Shown here: positions 1 through 8,302 of the stretch, in pieces | Position numbering within the stretch: position 1 is the stretch's first letter | Layout: every line of letters begins with the position of its first letter | Assembly: GCA_029979405.1 (NCBI GenBank) | Contig: JAPOHM010000056.1 | Location: 1-8,302, forward strand | DNA: 8,302 nt | DNA from: Methanobacteriota archaeon | GTDB lineage: Archaea > Thermoplasmatota > Poseidoniia > Poseidoniales > Poseidoniaceae | Reading direction: 5' to 3' | The notes under the pieces: model-generated | The model's database searches: none | What the model was told of the DNA's origin: nothing | What the model saw: the letters and a program-made list of their open reading frames with translations, nothing else | Position numbers and translations under genes: made by a program

Positions 1-1014
1 GTCAAAGTCATTAGTTGCTAAAGATGCCAAGACTCGCATTGCAACATATTGTTGGAATCGTGAAAGGTTTCCAGAACACCAAGCGGCAAAGACAAAAAAT
101 CTGTCATGTTTTTCAAGAATTAAGTTTACAAATCTCTTGACATTTATCCCGTTTAGAATCGAATCGATTGGCACGTTGAATGCTTCTGAAAAGCCGACCA
201 TGCCTCCCCGGCCGTCATATGTTCTGGGTGTAATGTTGATGCCACCAAGGTCATCACATGTCTTAATCTGTTCACTGGTTAGGTGGCCATTGAAATGCGT
301 TAAATCTAGCATTGATACTACCTCACTATACCAATCTGGAATTCTATACCAGAAGCCACCGATGCAAAGATTTCTTCTTCTTCTCCCGGAAATGAATAGT
401 CTGTCACCGAAACCAGAAATGGTTTCGATTCCCTTACAATCATTGACTGAGCAAGTCAAAACTCGTTTTTCAATTGTCAAATGCTTTAGCTTTGAAGAAG
501 ATTCAATCGATAATTTACCGATAATGCCATCTCCATGAACAGTAATTGATTTCAATTTACTATTTCCAACAATCAAAATGTTACTGTAATTCTGGCTAAT
601 CTTTAGGTCAGAAATATTCTCAGGTATCAGAATAATGGAATCAACTTCTTCATCTAAAACTTCCTCAGAACTCGTTACAACCACCGATTTCCCATTGTCA
701 AAATCTATTGTACTGTTGGTAGTATTACGATAGAGACTGTGGATTTTGCCTGCATTTTTCAATATAATGTCATGCACTTCTCCTCGGATAACGACAGGCC
801 TCTTTGGCGCACTTTCAAAAATGATTTCAGCCCCAGGCCTTGAAGCGATTATGCATTCGAGAGAATCGATCTCATCAAGAATTAGTGAGGAGCCGTGGTG
901 AGTATTTTTGAGAGTGATTGTTTTGACGTCATTACCTATGAATCGTAGTCGTTCATCTAGGTCTAAATATACAGTCTCTTGCTTCGGCGTCGATTTGAAA
1001 ATAGTAGCTTCCAA
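1..1014 (-). CDS. Leucine-rich-repeat-like protein, third gene of ATPase cassette (partial, runs off left edge)
   Basis: The reading frame is open from the left edge of the window to about 1074, so the C-terminus is missing. There is no ATG near its beginning. I chose TTG at 1014 because GAAGGTGAT at 1029-1021, one mismatch from the ideal archaeal Shine-Dalgarno GGAGGTGAT, lies 6 nt upstream. The visible 338 residues are not a family I can name. The part encoded by about 582-357 has a repeating pattern of roughly 20-22 residues with a core like LxIxxxxxLxxI (ILIVGNSKLKSI, LSIESSSKLKHL, CSVNDCKGIETI), which resembles leucine-rich or other beta-solenoid repeats. A run of four arginines follows (AGA codons at 384-373). 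No signal peptide or membrane segment is visible. The gene follows the ATPase and pseudo-ATPase on the same strand, so a recognition or scaffold role beside them is plausible but inferred. An alternative start at TTG 1133 would need a frameshift near 1071. Confidence 0.6.
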   Translation of the reverse strand, partial: MEATIFKSTPKQETVYLDLDERLRFIGNDVKTITLKNTHHGSSLILDEIDSLECIIASRPGAEIIFESAPKRPVVIRGEVHDIILKNAGKIHSLYRNTTNSTIDFDNGKSVVVTSSEEVLDEEVDSIILIPENISDLKISQNYSNILIVGNSKLKSITVHGDGIIGKLSIESSSKLKHLTIEKRVLTCSVNDCKGIETISGFGDRLFISGRRRRNLCIGGFWYRIPDWYSEVVSMLDLTHFNGHLTSEQIKTCDDLGGINITPRTYDGRGGMVGFSEAFNVPIDSILNGINVKRFVNLILEKHDRFFVFAAWCSGNLSRFQQYVAMRVLASLATNDFD

Positions 1015-1052
1015 AACCAAATCACCTTCTTTGAACCAAACGCGAACGATAA

Positions 1053-1071
1053 CTGACAGAGCATCTGTCAG
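1053..1071. repeat. Perfect 8-bp inverted repeat with 3-nt loop before the third cassette gene
   Basis: CTGACAGA at 1053-1060 is followed by GCA and then TCTGTCAG at 1064-1071, a perfect inverted repeat. On the transcribed minus strand it would form an 8-bp RNA hairpin with loop TGC. The TGA stop (1070-1068) of a 21-codon frame beginning at TTG 1133 lies in its first arm. It sits 24 nt before the GAAGGTGAT ribosome site of the next gene. It could be an RNA control hairpin, an operator, or chance: about one such repeat is expected in a window this size. Confidence 0.55.
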
Positions 1072-1136: not shown

Positions 1137-1976
1137 TCACTCGTCTACTTCCAGAGCGGGAATCGTCGTGACATCAATCATTTCCGAGCCTATAAAATCA
1201 CCAAAAAGCATTACAAAATTCAATCCATGTGTTGAACATATTTCTCTTGCAAGCCGTAGTACTGATACCGATTCAAATACCGAAAGAGTATGTAAATCAA
1301 TGTATGATATTGAAGGAGGGCAGTATCCATAAATCCGCTTTCTCATCAGAGCTTGTGCAATGTTGTACAGCAATCTCACATATGCTGGAATGCGACTTGC
1401 ATTCCAGGCGTGTTTGATATCAAAATTATCTCTATTAAATCGCCATATGCAATCAAAATCTAATTCAACACTCCCATCGGCGTTGATTGTTTTAAGCCAG
1501 GAGTTGACTATTCGAACGATTTCCTTCCTTTGACTTTCAGAGGTGGGTTTGAATATTACACAGCGGTTTGAATAGAAATCACCATTATTGATAGTTATTG
1601 GTTTAACCATCGATTTCAACTTTGTTATCGCGTCCTTTCCCGAGAAAAAAATACCAGTCCCCAATCGCTGTAATTTGCTTTCAGTAGATGTAACACCAAC
1701 AAAATAACGGGTCAGCAAATATTCATGTCTGTCGGTTTTAAACCGCATTTCAACAGTGTATCGAGGCTTTCTCTTTGGAAAAGATACAATCTCAAAATGA
1801 TTTTTTGTATTGAACAGGTTCAACATTCTCAACGACGCCTCTTCAGCGGCTAAGCAGTTATTGAACATGATAAAGGAGCTATGAGGACTCAATTCAGCCG
1901 AACAAGGAGAAAAAGTAGCATCAAGATGACTAAATGAAAATGATATAAGTTCAGTAATCGATTCCAACCTTTTCAA
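1137..1976 (-). CDS. Probable pseudo-ATPase paralogue of the upstream ABC-type ATPase (279 aa)
   Basis: This is not a recognised named family. Manual comparison with the neighbouring ATPase (1973-2944) finds matching segments in the same order. Residues 34-55 align without gaps to its Walker A region, but the GKS triplet is replaced by AEE (44-46). Residues 75-79 (VEMRF) match IEMTF, and 86-92 match the following strand. Residues 192-210 resemble the signature-helix region. Residues 223-257 (ISYIDLHTL through LNFVML) match the Walker B strand, helix and next strand: D227 is kept, the catalytic acidic residue is L228, and the His switch is absent. It therefore appears to be a degenerate ABC-type domain unable to hydrolyse ATP, perhaps a heterodimer partner. 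The start is TTG at 1976, overlapping the ATPase stop as TTGA, which suggests translational coupling; a second TTG at 1967 is possible. The homology is inferred from eye alignment only. Confidence 0.75.
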   Translation of the reverse strand: MKRLESITELISFSFSHLDATFSPCSAELSPHSSFIMFNNCLAAEEASLRMLNLFNTKNHFEIVSFPKRKPRYTVEMRFKTDRHEYLLTRYFVGVTSTESKLQRLGTGIFFSGKDAITKLKSMVKPITINNGDFYSNRCVIFKPTSESQRKEIVRIVNSWLKTINADGSVELDFDCIWRFNRDNFDIKHAWNASRIPAYVRLLYNIAQALMRKRIYGYCPPSISYIDLHTLSVFESVSVLRLAREICSTHGLNFVMLFGDFIGSEMIDVTTIPALEVDE

Positions 1977-2944
1977 CCACCTTTCTTCCTTCTGTTTGCA
2001 TATTTTTTCATGTAATTTGAAAAACTCTTGATTGTGTATGGTGGGTTGGATACTATACTACTGTACACAGAAGGAATTCGATTATGAGGTATCCTTACAT
2101 TGTTTGAATCTAATATTCTGTGTCGCGATGTAACAATAATTTGTAGGTCATGTCGTTTGGCAATAACTTTCAAGATTTCACAGGTACAGTGCTTTAATTC
2201 CTTTCCGAGAGATCTATCGAAATCATCTATGAGTACAACCTTGGTCTTATCTTCCCCTACCTTTGAAATGTTGTGCGAAATATTCCCAATAAGCGTAAAA
2301 AATAGCTTCTCCTTAATCGATAAATTCTGGAATTTAGTTTCACTCCCATCTCTAAATACACAATAAGTATTCAATTTTTTATTGTATAATTTCTTAATAT
2401 CAATATCGATCAAACTGAGTAAACTATTGACGAAATCTAATTCAACTCTGTCAAATTTGTAATTGCTTTCATCTTCATCAGTAATCGAATCTGCTGATCT
2501 AATGAATCCGAATCTTACTTGCCACGGGGTATTCAAAATTGAATTGGATGGCGGAATTACTTGCATTAGGTATTCGGACGCTTCACCGTCTCGATAAAAT
2601 TGGGAATAATTCTCTCCAACATATAGATGAATGTCGGTAGTTAAATCATTTGTAATTACTCTTCTTAGGTAGTGTATCTTTTCGTTAGCGGTAAAGGTCA
2701 TTTCAATAAGGGATGTTTGGCCCATGAAACCAAATCCCCAAAACGATGAACATCTATGTTTTACATGTGGATTAAGAACGGTTCTAATCGCATTGAGAAT
2801 TGCTGACTTTCCATCCACATTACCTCCAGATATAGTGTTTAAACCGTCGCTAAATTCGTATGTTTGTAATTCATTTATTGATCTAAAATTTCTCACAGCT
2901 AATGAATGAATTCTCGTAACCGGAAACCTCTCGATTTTAGCCAT
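1973..2944 (-). CDS. SMC/RecF-like ABC-type ATPase (AAA_15/AAA_21-like), 323 aa
   Basis: This is a soluble ABC-class ATPase of the SMC/RecF/OLD kind, expected to couple ATP binding and dimerisation to action on DNA or a partner protein. The N-terminus has the usual IHSLAVRNFRSI strand-turn (12-23). Walker A is GGNVDGKSA at 40-48 with K46 and S47. A signature-like NLSIKEK lies at 207-213. Walker B is KVVLIDDFD at 235-243, with Asp rather than the common Glu at the catalytic position 241. A switch region TSRHR lies at 272-276. There is no long coiled coil, and at 323 residues it is short for this class. The tail is very basic (311-321). I prefer ATG 2944 over TTG 2956 because GGTG at 2953-2950 is spaced 5 nt from the ATG. 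It overlaps the following gene by four bases and follows pgk by about 58 nt on the same strand. No nuclease (TOPRIM) domain is attached, so it is not a full OLD nuclease. Confidence 0.85.
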   Translation of the reverse strand: MAKIERFPVTRIHSLAVRNFRSINELQTYEFSDGLNTISGGNVDGKSAILNAIRTVLNPHVKHRCSSFWGFGFMGQTSLIEMTFTANEKIHYLRRVITNDLTTDIHLYVGENYSQFYRDGEASEYLMQVIPPSNSILNTPWQVRFGFIRSADSITDEDESNYKFDRVELDFVNSLLSLIDIDIKKLYNKKLNTYCVFRDGSETKFQNLSIKEKLFFTLIGNISHNISKVGEDKTKVVLIDDFDRSLGKELKHCTCEILKVIAKRHDLQIIVTSRHRILDSNNVRIPHNRIPSVYSSIVSNPPYTIKSFSNYMKKYANRRKKGG

Positions 2945-3002: not shown

Positions 3003-4265
3003 CTATTGAAGGTCAATAGGCTTTGAGATTGAGAATTGAAACTGTTCAGCAGACTGCTCAAGAGAAGCGACACCTGGCATAACTCTGCCAGCGAGTAATT
3101 CTAAGCATGCTCCACCGCCTGTTGAAACGTGCCCCATTTTCGAGGTCAATTTGTTAGAAGAAACCAATGTTGCAGTATGACCTCCACCCATTACTGCATA
3201 GCCTTCGCTTTCGGCACATGCATTCAACATTTCAATCGTCCCGAATGCGAAATCAGGATTTTCAAACACACCAGCAGGTCCATTCAAGATGATTGTTCCA
3301 GCAGACTTAATACCCTTTGACAATGCTCGAATACTGGTAATTCCAAGGTCAAAAATCGGGGCATGGATTGGAAGGTTTTTGATGCTCATGTCAACTCTAT
3401 TTCCTTCAAGATTCACAGCAACATCACTAGGCATTATGATTCTCTCAGGGAAATCCTTCAACAATTTCGCAGCCTTCGCAATCGTGGAATCCCAATTATC
3501 CTTTAATTCACCCTTAAGGAACTGAATGTTTCCTTCTCCCAAATCAATTCCAGATAAGTACAAGAATAGATTTGCAACTCCGCCTGTAACCCATACGTGG
3601 TCACAAATGTCGCCTTTCAGCATATTTTCTGTAACAACAACTGAATCGTCGACCTTGATTCCTCCAAGTACGGCAATACACGGCCTTTTCGGATTTTCAA
3701 GCGCCATTCCTAATTTTTTCAATTCGTGATTCATCAACTCGCCTGCTATACAGGGTAAGGTGTTAGTAAAACCAGTAATTGAGGGTGAATTTCTGTGAGC
3801 GCAAGCGAAGGCGTCGTTGACAAAAGCATCGGCGACCATCGACAAATTTTGCACCATCATTGTCTGTGAAAATCTTTCAAAATCACCTTTTAGTTTGACT
3901 TCGTCTTCATCCATTCTGACATTGTTGAGCATCAATATTTCGCCATCTTGCAACTGTTCAATGGCTGTTAATGCTTTCTTTCCATAGATGTCCTCAACCC
4001 ACTTGACATTTTTTCCAATTAATCTGCCCAATTCTCTTGCGTGACCTAAGGTCGATGTGAAATCATCTTTGCCGGGTCTTGATTGATGGGCCAAAATAAC
4101 AACCTTTGATTTTGTTAATTTGTTGAGGGTTGGAATGATTCTTCGTATCCTCGTATTGTCGAGAAACTGCCTTGCAGATGGTTCCATAGGAGAATTAATG
4201 TCTACCCTTACAAGAACTGTGCGTCCTTCCAGGTCAACGTCGTCCAGACAGAGGAAGTCCGCCAT
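3003..4265 (-). CDS. pgk: Phosphoglycerate kinase, archaeal type (420 aa)
   Basis: The enzyme interconverts 1,3-bisphosphoglycerate + ADP and 3-phosphoglycerate + ATP in cytosolic glycolysis and gluconeogenesis. The N-domain substrate site is visible: VRVDINSP (19-26), DNTRIR (36-41), AHQSRP (59-64), NNVR (114-117) and AHRNSPS (156-162). The C-domain nucleotide site follows: LGGIKVDDS (200-208), NGPAGVFE (328-335), GGGHTA (360-365) and STGGGA (381-386). The LDDVDLEG opening, AHQSRPGK and GGGH motifs are archaeal rather than bacterial in style. I chose ATG 4265 because archaeal enzymes begin close to the LDDVDLEG segment. The frame continues upstream to a TTG at 4322, which would add 19 residues that do not look conserved. 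Length is normal and all expected motifs are present. It diverges from the methyltransferase across a short region with one TATA-like box. Confidence 0.96.
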   Translation of the reverse strand: MADFLCLDDVDLEGRTVLVRVDINSPMEPSARQFLDNTRIRRIIPTLNKLTKSKVVILAHQSRPGKDDFTSTLGHARELGRLIGKNVKWVEDIYGKKALTAIEQLQDGEILMLNNVRMDEDEVKLKGDFERFSQTMMVQNLSMVADAFVNDAFACAHRNSPSITGFTNTLPCIAGELMNHELKKLGMALENPKRPCIAVLGGIKVDDSVVVTENMLKGDICDHVWVTGGVANLFLYLSGIDLGEGNIQFLKGELKDNWDSTIAKAAKLLKDFPERIIMPSDVAVNLEGNRVDMSIKNLPIHAPIFDLGITSIRALSKGIKSAGTIILNGPAGVFENPDFAFGTIEMLNACAESEGYAVMGGGHTATLVSSNKLTSKMGHVSTGGGACLELLAGRVMPGVASLEQSAEQFQFSISKPIDLQ

Positions 4266-4343
4266 CAAACTCTGCGAGTAGCGGTCGGTTTTTGATTCGA
4301 CCGGTTCAAACGCGCGTCTCAATTAACAGGATTGCGCGAAATC

Positions 4344-4372: not shown

Positions 4373-5302
4373 ATGGCGCGTGGAGATTCTTTTGAAGGTC
4401 CACGTAAAAGAGCAAAAACCTCTACTTCTTCATTTGGGGTATCAAAGCGAGAGGGTCACGACTCTTCGCTATATTATCAATCAAAAATGTATGATGAAAT
4501 GGTGACAAGTAGAGAGGTCGGCGATCATGTTGAATTCCCAACCGAATTAGAAGATCACATTATGTGTGGCGATTCAAGAAACCTTCCGCTTCCAGATAAT
4601 TGTGTTCATTTGGTGGTAACATCGCCTCCTTACAATGCATCAAAAGAGTATGACCAAAATTTGTCTTTTAGTGATTATTTGCAACTTTTGAAAGACGTAT
4701 TTGCAGAGTGTTACAGGGTCTTAGCGCCCGGAGGAAGAATGGTTGTTAACGTTGCAAACCTTGGCAGGAAACCGTATATTCCTCTAACCAGTCATGTCAA
4801 CTTAATCATGCATGAGTTGGGCTTTTTGCACAGAGGAGAAGTGATTTGGGATAAGTCTGCAAGTTCAGGAGCGTCGTGTGCTTGGGGGTCATTTCAGTCA
4901 GCATCAAACCCGTGTCTGAGAGATATCCATGAATACATATTGATGTATTCAAAAGGGGACTACAAATTACCTCGAAAGAAATCTGAAAGGGATGCAGGTC
5001 GAATAGATACTATCGGCAAAGAGGATTTCGTCCGACAAACAAAATCAATTTGGGCATTCCCTACAGAATCAGCAAAGCGAGTAAATCACCCAGCTCCTTT
5101 CCCGGTAGAGTTGCCTAAACGCTGTATTGAGATGTTTACATTTGCTGGTGATTTGGTACTTGATCCATTTCTGGGTTCGGGTACGACTGCAGTAGCCGCA
5201 AAAATGACTGGAAGAAAATACTTCGGAGTCGATCTTTCAGAGGATTATTGCGAATCCTCAAAAATTCGTTTACAGAACACAGAAGGTCTTCTAAAAGTAT
5301 AA
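4373..5302 (+). CDS. Site-specific DNA methyltransferase, beta class, probable N4-cytosine type (309 aa)
   Basis: The enzyme transfers a methyl group from S-adenosylmethionine to a base in a specific duplex DNA sequence. Catalytic motif IV is TSPPY (83-87), a form typical of N4-cytosine enzymes, though some adenine enzymes share it. Motif I, the AdoMet-binding loop, is DPFLGSGTT (264-272), followed by YFGVDLSEDY (283-292) where the AdoMet ribose acid is expected. The order IV then I marks the beta class. The central part (about 155-245) contains WDKSASSG, WGSFQSASNP, RDIHEYIL and NHPAPFPVELPKR, strongly conserved in a widespread group of archaeal and bacterial solitary methylases. The first 30 residues are basic and Ser/Thr-rich and precede the fold. 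No restriction endonuclease is adjacent: neighbours are pgk and a membrane protein, so this looks like an orphan methylase. The recognition sequence cannot be read from the protein. The ATG is preceded by a TATA-like box at leaderless spacing. Confidence 0.93.
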   Translation: MARGDSFEGPRKRAKTSTSSFGVSKREGHDSSLYYQSKMYDEMVTSREVGDHVEFPTELEDHIMCGDSRNLPLPDNCVHLVVTSPPYNASKEYDQNLSFSDYLQLLKDVFAECYRVLAPGGRMVVNVANLGRKPYIPLTSHVNLIMHELGFLHRGEVIWDKSASSGASCAWGSFQSASNPCLRDIHEYILMYSKGDYKLPRKKSERDAGRIDTIGKEDFVRQTKSIWAFPTESAKRVNHPAPFPVELPKRCIEMFTFAGDLVLDPFLGSGTTAVAAKMTGRKYFGVDLSEDYCESSKIRLQNTEGLLKV

Positions 5303-7652: not shown

Positions 7653-8302
7653 ATGGCAAAGCCATACTCTACAAGTCACATTGGTTTCGTATCCTCTGGA
7701 TTTACCGACATGAGGTTGTCTGGCGCTGTAAAGGAACAGTTAGTTGACATGCTTGTATCTGAAATTGATAGAATGGTTCCATCAATGGAAGAAGCCACTC
7801 TTAGTGCCACTCCAGACAAGAAGACACTCGATGATACCAAAAGAACGCGCTTGAACTACAATCGAACAAGAGAGTTAATGATTGAGCGCCTTGAGAACTT
7901 AGAAAGTGTTGGTTCTGAAGCAGTTCAAGCAGGAATTGAGCACCTTGAAACATACCTCAAAAAAATTCTACATGCTGCTGAAAGCGCAGCGGCAAAAGAT
8001 CGTGTAAACACGATTAAACCTAGACATCTTTCTGCAGTCGCCTCCGTTCAAGAAGCTCCCGAGGAAGGAGAAAGCCACGTCGAAATTGAAGAAGACGTAC
8101 TTGAAGGACAAGTTACCGGGTCTGCACTCACTCCAGCCGTTATAAGAAAAATGGCAAAGTCATTCGCTCGTATGCCGGTAACAGATTCCGCAATCGAGGA
8201 ACTGATGATGTGGTATTACGAAGTTGTTGATGAAACTGGTCAAAACATCAGAGAGCATGCACAACTCGGTAGTAATCCAGCTAATTTCATAGATGCTCTT
8301 GA
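7653..8302 (+). CDS. Protein with tandem histone-fold-like segments (partial, runs off right edge)
   Basis: The frame opens with ATG directly after the upstream TAG, with GGTGG at 7643-7647 as ribosome site, and stays open to the window end (216 codons visible). I do not recognise an established gene name. Residues 86-130 have the pattern of the archaeal histone core: a helix start near VGSEAV, a long amphipathic helix (GIEHLETYLKKILHAAESA), then a short loop and VNTIKPRHLSAV, resembling the RKTIKAEDI segment of HMf-type histones. A second copy appears at about 159-216: LTPAVIRKMAKSFARMPV, then TDSAIEELMMWYYEVVDETG, then the loop before NPANFIDAL. A weaker third copy may lie at 22-64 (LSGAVKEQL through DKKTLDDTK). 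An acidic linker (134-152, EAPEEGESHVEIEEDV) separates the two clearer units. It could be a tandem histone or a TAF-like transcription component. Few basic residues lie on the predicted surface, so DNA wrapping is uncertain. Confidence 0.8.
   Translation, partial: MAKPYSTSHIGFVSSGFTDMRLSGAVKEQLVDMLVSEIDRMVPSMEEATLSATPDKKTLDDTKRTRLNYNRTRELMIERLENLESVGSEAVQAGIEHLETYLKKILHAAESAAAKDRVNTIKPRHLSAVASVQEAPEEGESHVEIEEDVLEGQVTGSALTPAVIRKMAKSFARMPVTDSAIEELMMWYYEVVDETGQNIREHAQLGSNPANFIDAL

What the first reader, a model, noticed from the sequence alone, without database searches (positions are those of the whole stretch)
1137..2944. ABC-type ATPase encoded with an apparent catalytically dead copy of itself
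The product of 1137-1976 aligns by eye along its length to the adjacent ATPase. The Walker A GKS becomes AEE, the catalytic Walker B acid becomes Leu (Asp before it retained), and the His switch is gone. The flanking strands (VEMRF/IEMTF, the following strand, and the Walker B-helix-strand spacing) are kept. The two genes overlap by TTGA. This points to an obligate heterodimer with one working and one dead half, known in some ABC systems but unusual for a short SMC/RecF-like ATPase pair in an archaeon. I do not recognise it as a named system.
Basis: partly seen in the sequence, partly recalled or inferred. Interest (0 to 1): 0.7.

Follow-up and report, generated by a model that had tools for sequence, protein, structure and literature searches.

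The report
Archaeal ATPase with dead twin partner
A few ocean archaea carry a small DNA-repair-like ATPase gene followed by a gene for a similarly folded protein that has lost its ATP-using parts; the pair sits in a variable stretch of the chromosome, diverges fast, and may be a new kind of anti-virus module.

The parts
1973..2944 (-). LIVE: 323-aa single-head ABC ATPase (ATG start; 327 aa if TTG 2956 is used)
2804..2827 (-). LIVE Walker A, residues 44-51 GGNVDGKS (numbering from TTG 2956)
   Evidence: sequence; GK[ST] in 14 of 15 members
2309..2323 (-). LIVE signature region, residues 212-216 LSIKE
   Evidence: sequence; variable in relatives, such as LSGGD, LAGGD, LPGGY
2222..2239 (-). LIVE Walker B, residues 240-245 VVLIDD
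   Evidence: D244 in 15 of 15; next residue E in 8, D in 5, Q in 2 of 15
1137..1976 (-). DEAD: 279-aa pseudo-ABC ATPase head (start TTG 1976 or, by homology, TTG 1967)
1839..1862 (-). DEAD residues 39-46 NNCLAAEE, place of Walker A; modelled helix starts at 41
   Evidence: profile alignment, DSSP of the model, 12 of 12 without Lys
1377..1391 (-). DEAD residues 196-200 IPAYV, place of the signature motif
1296..1313 (-). DEAD residues 222-227 SISYID, place of Walker B
1..1020 (-). SOL: 5' part of a ~590-aa protein of the same island, solenoid-like by eye only (runs off the window)
   Evidence: tblastn 38% to the SOL gene of L003; no Pfam match for the L001 homologue at E 0.1
3003..4322 (-). Border of the island: phosphoglycerate kinase (core gene)
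   Evidence: Pfam PGK E 7e-108; PGK followed directly by an amidohydrolase gene in 25 of 29 other loci

Best explanation
The two genes are an accessory, defence-type module of marine Poseidoniales. LIVE is a minimal Rad50/OLD-type ABC ATPase head without coiled coil. DEAD is an ABC head, probably a diverged paralogue of LIVE, that has lost Walker A, Walker B and the signature motif. Shown by computation: predicted fold, loss of motifs, adjacency, patchy distribution, island location, fast but constrained evolution. Inferred: the two proteins assemble, DEAD serves as a fixed structural or sensing head, and ATP binding at the only intact Walker site, in LIVE, switches the complex when an invader is sensed. 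The output would differ by lineage: an HNH nuclease encoded 14 bp upstream in one clade, and the neighbouring SOL, MoxR-like and vWA genes in the clade of the window.
For: DEAD model is an ABC head over its whole length. Motifs lost in 12 of 12. LIVE and DEAD adjacent in 8 of 8 loci where both can be seen: window, L001-L005, L011, L017. In 318 genomes of the order, ATPase in 6 and DEAD in 7, the 6 nested in the 7; in the 7th the contig ends inside DEAD. DEAD is not decaying: dN/dS 0.17 and 0.10; more conserved than LIVE in 16 of 21 genome pairs (15 of 15 without the window, 1 of 6 with it). Defence-like setting: island between PGK and an amidohydrolase gene in L001 and L005, while these two adjoin in 25 of 29 other loci; pair 30-33% identical between the window and L001-L003 against 74-78% for PGK and the methylase; in L004 and G033 an HNH gene upstream and a CARF gene nearby; LIVE profile closest to retron/Septu PtuA among solved structures, with AriA also matched, and an AbiLi model matches 15 of 15 members.
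Against: No physical or functional evidence. DEAD also lacks the signature motif, so it could not complete LIVE's ATP site in the classic way. Paralogy rests on one profile-profile score that drops when a clade is removed and is invisible to hmmsearch. No HNH relative lies in the window or in six context-A loci searched. In the ATPase survey only 6 candidates per genome were scored of up to 17 in the genomes listed, so a LIVE gene without DEAD could have been missed. One LIVE gene (L005) is split by a frameshift.
Confidence: 0.5

Rival explanations
1. LIVE works as an ordinary homodimer with two full ATP sites, and DEAD is a separately bound adaptor or inhibitor with an ABC-like fold, not the second half of an ATP sandwich.
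For: Several LIVE members keep a GG-containing signature segment while DEAD has none; related PtuA structures include a PtuA dimer and a PtuA hexamer (entry titles).
Against: Every LIVE gene with visible context has a DEAD gene directly downstream, which fits a stoichiometric subunit as well. Some LIVE signatures are eroded, such as LSIKE in the window.
Confidence: 0.3
2. DEAD is an independent ABC-superfamily protein recruited next to LIVE, not a duplicate of it.
For: About 15% identity; profile-profile P falls to 0.0087 (and is no longer collinear) or 0.0011 when one clade is dropped; an AAA/MoxR-like family scored 30.8 against DEAD over 14 columns; hmmsearch sees nothing.
Against: Full-set score 49.1 over 259-265 collinear columns beats all controls, while DEAD shows no similarity to SMC heads of the same order (P 0.23-0.83).
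Confidence: 0.3
3. The pair is a housekeeping DNA-repair or chromosome factor, for example standing in for a missing Rad50.
For: Fold of Rad50/SMC heads; no Rad50 model match at E <= 1e-10 in 9 of 9 genomes searched, while the same search rings in 10 of 14 control genomes.
Against: Present in only 7 of 318 genomes of the order, in a variable island, diverging far faster than its neighbours.
Confidence: 0.1
4. DEAD is a decaying pseudogene of a tandem duplication.
For: All catalytic motifs are gone.
Against: Open frame in the members seen whole (L004 has ambiguous bases, G027 is cut by the contig end); dN/dS 0.10-0.17; 28 invariant columns among 12 sequences; often more conserved than LIVE.
Confidence: 0.02

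Closest known systems
AbiL (AbiLi ATPase) of lactococcal abortive infection
   Same: AbiLi model matches 15 of 15 LIVE members, best E 2e-19, and is the best PADLOC match of the window's LIVE; ATPase gene in a two-gene unit (PMC3985639, passages)
   Different: The partner AbiLii (RloB/Toprim-like as I recall, not tested) is here replaced by a dead ABC head; DEAD matches no AbiL model
PARIS (AriA/AriB)
   Same: An AriA model matches 15 of 15 LIVE members, and AriA chains are among the profile's PDB matches
   Different: No Toprim hit among the nine window proteins scanned; the partner is a pseudo-ABC head; LIVE is shorter than AriA chains of 464 aa
Septu and retron type I-A (PtuA/PtuB)
   Same: Retron/Septu PtuA heads the PDB matches of the LIVE profile; L004 and G033 have an HNH gene upstream with weak PtuB hits for G033 (E 0.0024)
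   Different: No HNH relative in the window or six context-A loci; LIVE about 320 aa against retron/Septu PtuA chains of 456-552; an extra pseudo-ABC subunit; a retron was not sought
Rad50/SMC heads, LmuB (Lamassu), YydD
   Same: Predicted fold of DEAD; Rad50/SMC also for LIVE
   Different: One-piece genes of about 280-350 aa without long coiled coil
ABC exporters with a degenerate site (MRP1, TAP, TmrAB)
   Same: One canonical and one degenerate site (PMC7756269, passages)
   Different: There the degenerate site still binds ATP; here DEAD has no P-loop
MoxR-vWA ternary conflict systems (PMC7159879, passages)
   Same: The island carries an AAA/MoxR-like gene, a vWA gene and a third protein; that paper also describes inactive STAND NTPases as third component
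   Different: The vWA protein here is DUF2201_N plus DUF2201, a name absent from that paper's text; the pair is of ABC, not STAND, type

Membership tests
ABC ATPase head (Rad50/SMC/OLD type), applied to DEAD | ABC head fold | tested here: met
ABC ATPase head (Rad50/SMC/OLD type), applied to DEAD | Walker A, Walker B, signature motif | tested here: not met
   absent in 12 of 12 members
ABC ATPase head, applied to LIVE | Walker A and Walker B Asp | tested here: met
   GK[ST] in 14 of 15, D244 in 15 of 15
Rad50 or SMC proper | long coiled coil between the two half-heads | tested here: not met
   LIVE is 323 aa; longest modelled helix 18 residues
Septu / PtuAB | HNH nuclease gene (PtuB) next to the ATPase | tested here: not met
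   no HNH among nine window proteins; the G033 HNH protein finds only L004 and itself among nine loci
Septu / PtuAB | ATPase within the PtuA family | tested here: inconclusive
   PtuA models shown for the window match mainly residues 15-67
AbiL / PARIS (split OLD) | separate Toprim-type partner gene | tested here: not met
   the adjacent partner has a predicted ABC-head fold and no AbiLii or AriB match; genes outside the window not searched
Degenerate-site ABC heterodimer | physical heterodimer of active and inactive heads | not testable with these tools
   no complex prediction or binding data available
MoxR-vWA ternary conflict system | MoxR and vWA genes adjacent to a third core protein | tested here: inconclusive
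   AAA and vWA genes follow SOL in L001, L005, G033, G027; the AAA gene is MoxR-like by eye, Pfam AAA/AAA_5 best, no NCBIfam match; beyond the window's end

The most novel reading that the evidence does not exclude
An undescribed archaeal immune module built on an asymmetric pair of SMC/Rad50-type heads: one ATP-binding head and one obligate pseudo-head without any nucleotide-binding element. The pseudo-head would turn a two-site ATPase into a one-site switch (natural Asp or Gln at the catalytic position in 7 of 15 LIVE members), coupled to interchangeable outputs: an HNH nuclease in one lineage and an AAA-vWA island in another.
Probability: 0.3. Interest if true: 0.75.

Novelty: new variant of a known kind. 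Interest (0 to 1): 0.55.

Why it matters
Short ABC ATPases drive several recent antiviral systems (PARIS, Septu, Gabija), normally with a nuclease or Toprim partner. Here the partner would be a pseudo-ATPase of the same fold, which would show that an ABC sensor can be rebuilt around a dead head, as happened in transporters. It would also give Poseidoniales, common ocean archaea (recalled), a candidate defence module; the listings of my three searches on their defence genes showed no paper on that subject, but one search listed only 10 of 97 papers.

Tried and rejected
DpdD as a relative of DEAD (PADLOC E 0.006): seen in 1 of 12 members only, taken as chance. PHROG tail-sheath hit E 0.04: taken as chance. 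DUF2326 in 2 of 12 members, best E 0.012: too weak to use, though an ABC family as I recall. Pairwise BLASTP and hmmsearch with 3000 shuffled decoys failed to link the two families; only profile-profile did. The first SMC control was flawed because 3 of 8 sequences came from the wrong strand; redone with 8 of 8. Exact-pattern or tblastn searches of viral contigs, phages and plasmids found no relative (DEAD; LIVE; phages were searched with LIVE only, plasmids with both). The single-sequence DEAD scan of genome contigs found nothing. DEAD in 243 genomes of the phylum: 1, G001 itself; in 399 genomes of G004's order: 1, G004 itself. A direct superposition of the two models or a complex prediction was not possible (no coordinates, both prediction jobs used). 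The context of P0005-P0011 could not be read, so 'LIVE never without DEAD' rests on 8 loci. Krishnan et al. 2020, the ABC ATPase classification most likely to mention such pairs, is not held, so a prior mention there cannot be excluded; four searches for a pseudo-ATPase or inactive partner (0 of 0, 8 of 8, 12 of 17 and 8 of 20 papers listed) showed no listing of such a pair, and passages read in PMC10853773 and PMC12839542 describe none.

Full report
What is in the window. On the minus strand, after phosphoglycerate kinase (PGK, 4322-3003), lie an ATPase gene (ATG at 2944, stop at 1973; here LIVE) and a second gene (1976-1137; here DEAD), then the 5' part of a long gene (1020 to beyond position 1; here SOL, solenoid-like by eye only). 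No tRNA was found and no Rfam family reaches its threshold. LIVE matches AAA_23 above its cut-off (E 2e-9) and, below cut-off, SMC_N and AAA_15; DEAD matches no Pfam or NCBIfam family.

Is it dead? In profile register, live GGNVDGKS faces NNCLAAEE, and the model starts a helix where the P-loop should be. No member has the Walker A lysine (0 of 12) or an acidic residue at the Walker B Asp position (0 of 12); LSxxE is replaced by a segment starting P[SA] in 10 of 12, MS in L003 and PW in P0016. LIVE itself is not uniform: the general-base position is Glu in 8, Asp in 5 (the window's clade) and Gln in 2 (L004, L017) of 15, and P0007 has Thr for the last Walker A glycine.

Who has it? Homologues of DEAD are few: 2 in the first search of 5.8 billion proteins and 8 with a profile, at E <= 1. 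A genome scan with the ATPase alignment found five loci, titled Poseidoniales, Poseidoniaceae or Euryarchaeota; in each the next gene is a DEAD relative. A phylum sample gave only G001 itself (1 of 243). So in 8 of 8 loci where both genes can be seen they are adjacent (window, L001-L005, L011, L017).

Where is it? In other genomes of the order PGK is followed directly by an amidohydrolase gene (PF01979 E 1e-40): 25 of 29 loci. These are the 30 best of 57 hits in a sample of 60 genomes, less G001, which has the pair; two of the four exceptions end at or near the contig end. In L001 and L005 an 8.5-9.2 kb island with LIVE, DEAD, SOL, an AAA (MoxR-like by eye) and a vWA/DUF2201 gene lies between these two genes. 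G033 has SOL, AAA and vWA next to the amidohydrolase and, upstream on the same contig, an HNH_5 gene 14 bp before LIVE-DEAD, with a CARF-domain gene in between (E 2e-11). L004 has the same HNH, LIVE, DEAD, CARF and SOL genes. The HNH protein has no tblastn match in the window, L001, L002, L003, L005, L011 or L026. SOL occurs in 15 of 318 genomes at E <= 1e-10, 12 of them at E <= 1e-30; 6 of the 7 pair carriers are among those 12, a hypergeometric P of 5e-9 that ignores shared ancestry. SOL-AAA-vWA also occurs without the pair (L039-L042), so it need not be part of the same machine.

How does it evolve? Between the window and L001-L003, PGK and the methylase are 74-78% identical, the pair 30-33%; among L001-L003 81-87% against 47-59%. 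dN/dS is low where it can be measured: DEAD 0.17 (L002/L005) and 0.10 (L004/L017), LIVE 0.24 (L004/L017). DEAD is more conserved than LIVE in 16 of 21 genome pairs: all 15 without the window but only 1 of 6 with it. So DEAD is a constrained protein, not a relic.

What it probably does. Patchy island location, fast divergence, LIVE's likeness to AbiLi, PtuA and AriA, and HNH and CARF neighbours in one lineage point to a conflict role; this is inference from context. The mechanism I favour is a complex in which DEAD acts as a structural or sensing head and nucleotide binding at LIVE's only intact site switches the complex. Because DEAD lacks the signature motif, the transporter-style model, in which the inactive half completes the active site, does not fit simply; a LIVE homodimer with DEAD bound elsewhere is a serious rival. 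In transporters the degenerate site still binds ATP and holds the dimer (PMC7756269, passages).

Comparison with known kinds. LIVE belongs to the broad group of short ABC ATPases of defence systems. The defining partner of each named system was looked for: no Toprim hit is among the nine window proteins, and an HNH gene (Septu) is absent in the window and six context-A loci. PARIS and other OLD-ABC systems were checked in passages of PMC10568477 and PMC12839542, PtuAB in passages of PMC11555353, AbiL in passages of PMC3985639. The most relevant classification of ABC ATPases (Krishnan et al. 2020) could not be read. I therefore call it a new variant of a known kind, with moderate interest.

Noticed in passing
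L001:9102-18350; L005:9919-18408: The PGK/amidohydrolase junction looks like an integration hotspot: the two genes adjoin in 25 of 29 other loci, and 8.5-9.2 kb of further genes lie between them here.
   Followed up: partly
L037:10105-10857; L004:16738-17490: CARF-domain gene (PADLOC CARF3 E 2e-11) near HNH-LIVE-DEAD in G033 and L004, beside two long unassigned genes.
   Followed up: partly
L004 and L017 LIVE proteins: Walker B reads IIDQ: a natural Gln at the catalytic Glu position, the change made in laboratories to trap ATP in ABC proteins (recalled).
   Followed up: no
L001:9120-9953: An unassigned 277-aa gene sits between PGK and LIVE, not seen there in L002, L003, L005 or the window.
   Followed up: no
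L005:9983-10988: The LIVE gene is split by a frameshift while DEAD is intact; real loss or assembly error not decided.
   Followed up: no
window 4373-5302: Type II-like DNA methyltransferase gene without a restriction partner in view; also found near PGK in 17 of 29 other loci.
   Followed up: no
window 7653-8300: Protein with a weak histone-fold match in its middle part (PF00125 E 6e-4, below cut-off).
   Followed up: no
window 1053-1071: A perfect 7-bp inverted repeat (CTGACAG, 5-base loop, CTGTCAG) between DEAD and SOL, seen by eye.
   Followed up: no
G004 (L004): The record is titled Euryarchaeota and its locus matches G033, but it is not in G001's order and the 20 other genomes listed for its order are 1.5-5 Mb, most above 2 Mb; a misbinned contig or odd placement is possible.
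   Followed up: no
9 Poseidoniales genomes: No Rad50 model match at E <= 1e-10 in 9 of 9 genomes, while an SMC match is present in 9 of 9.
   Followed up: no
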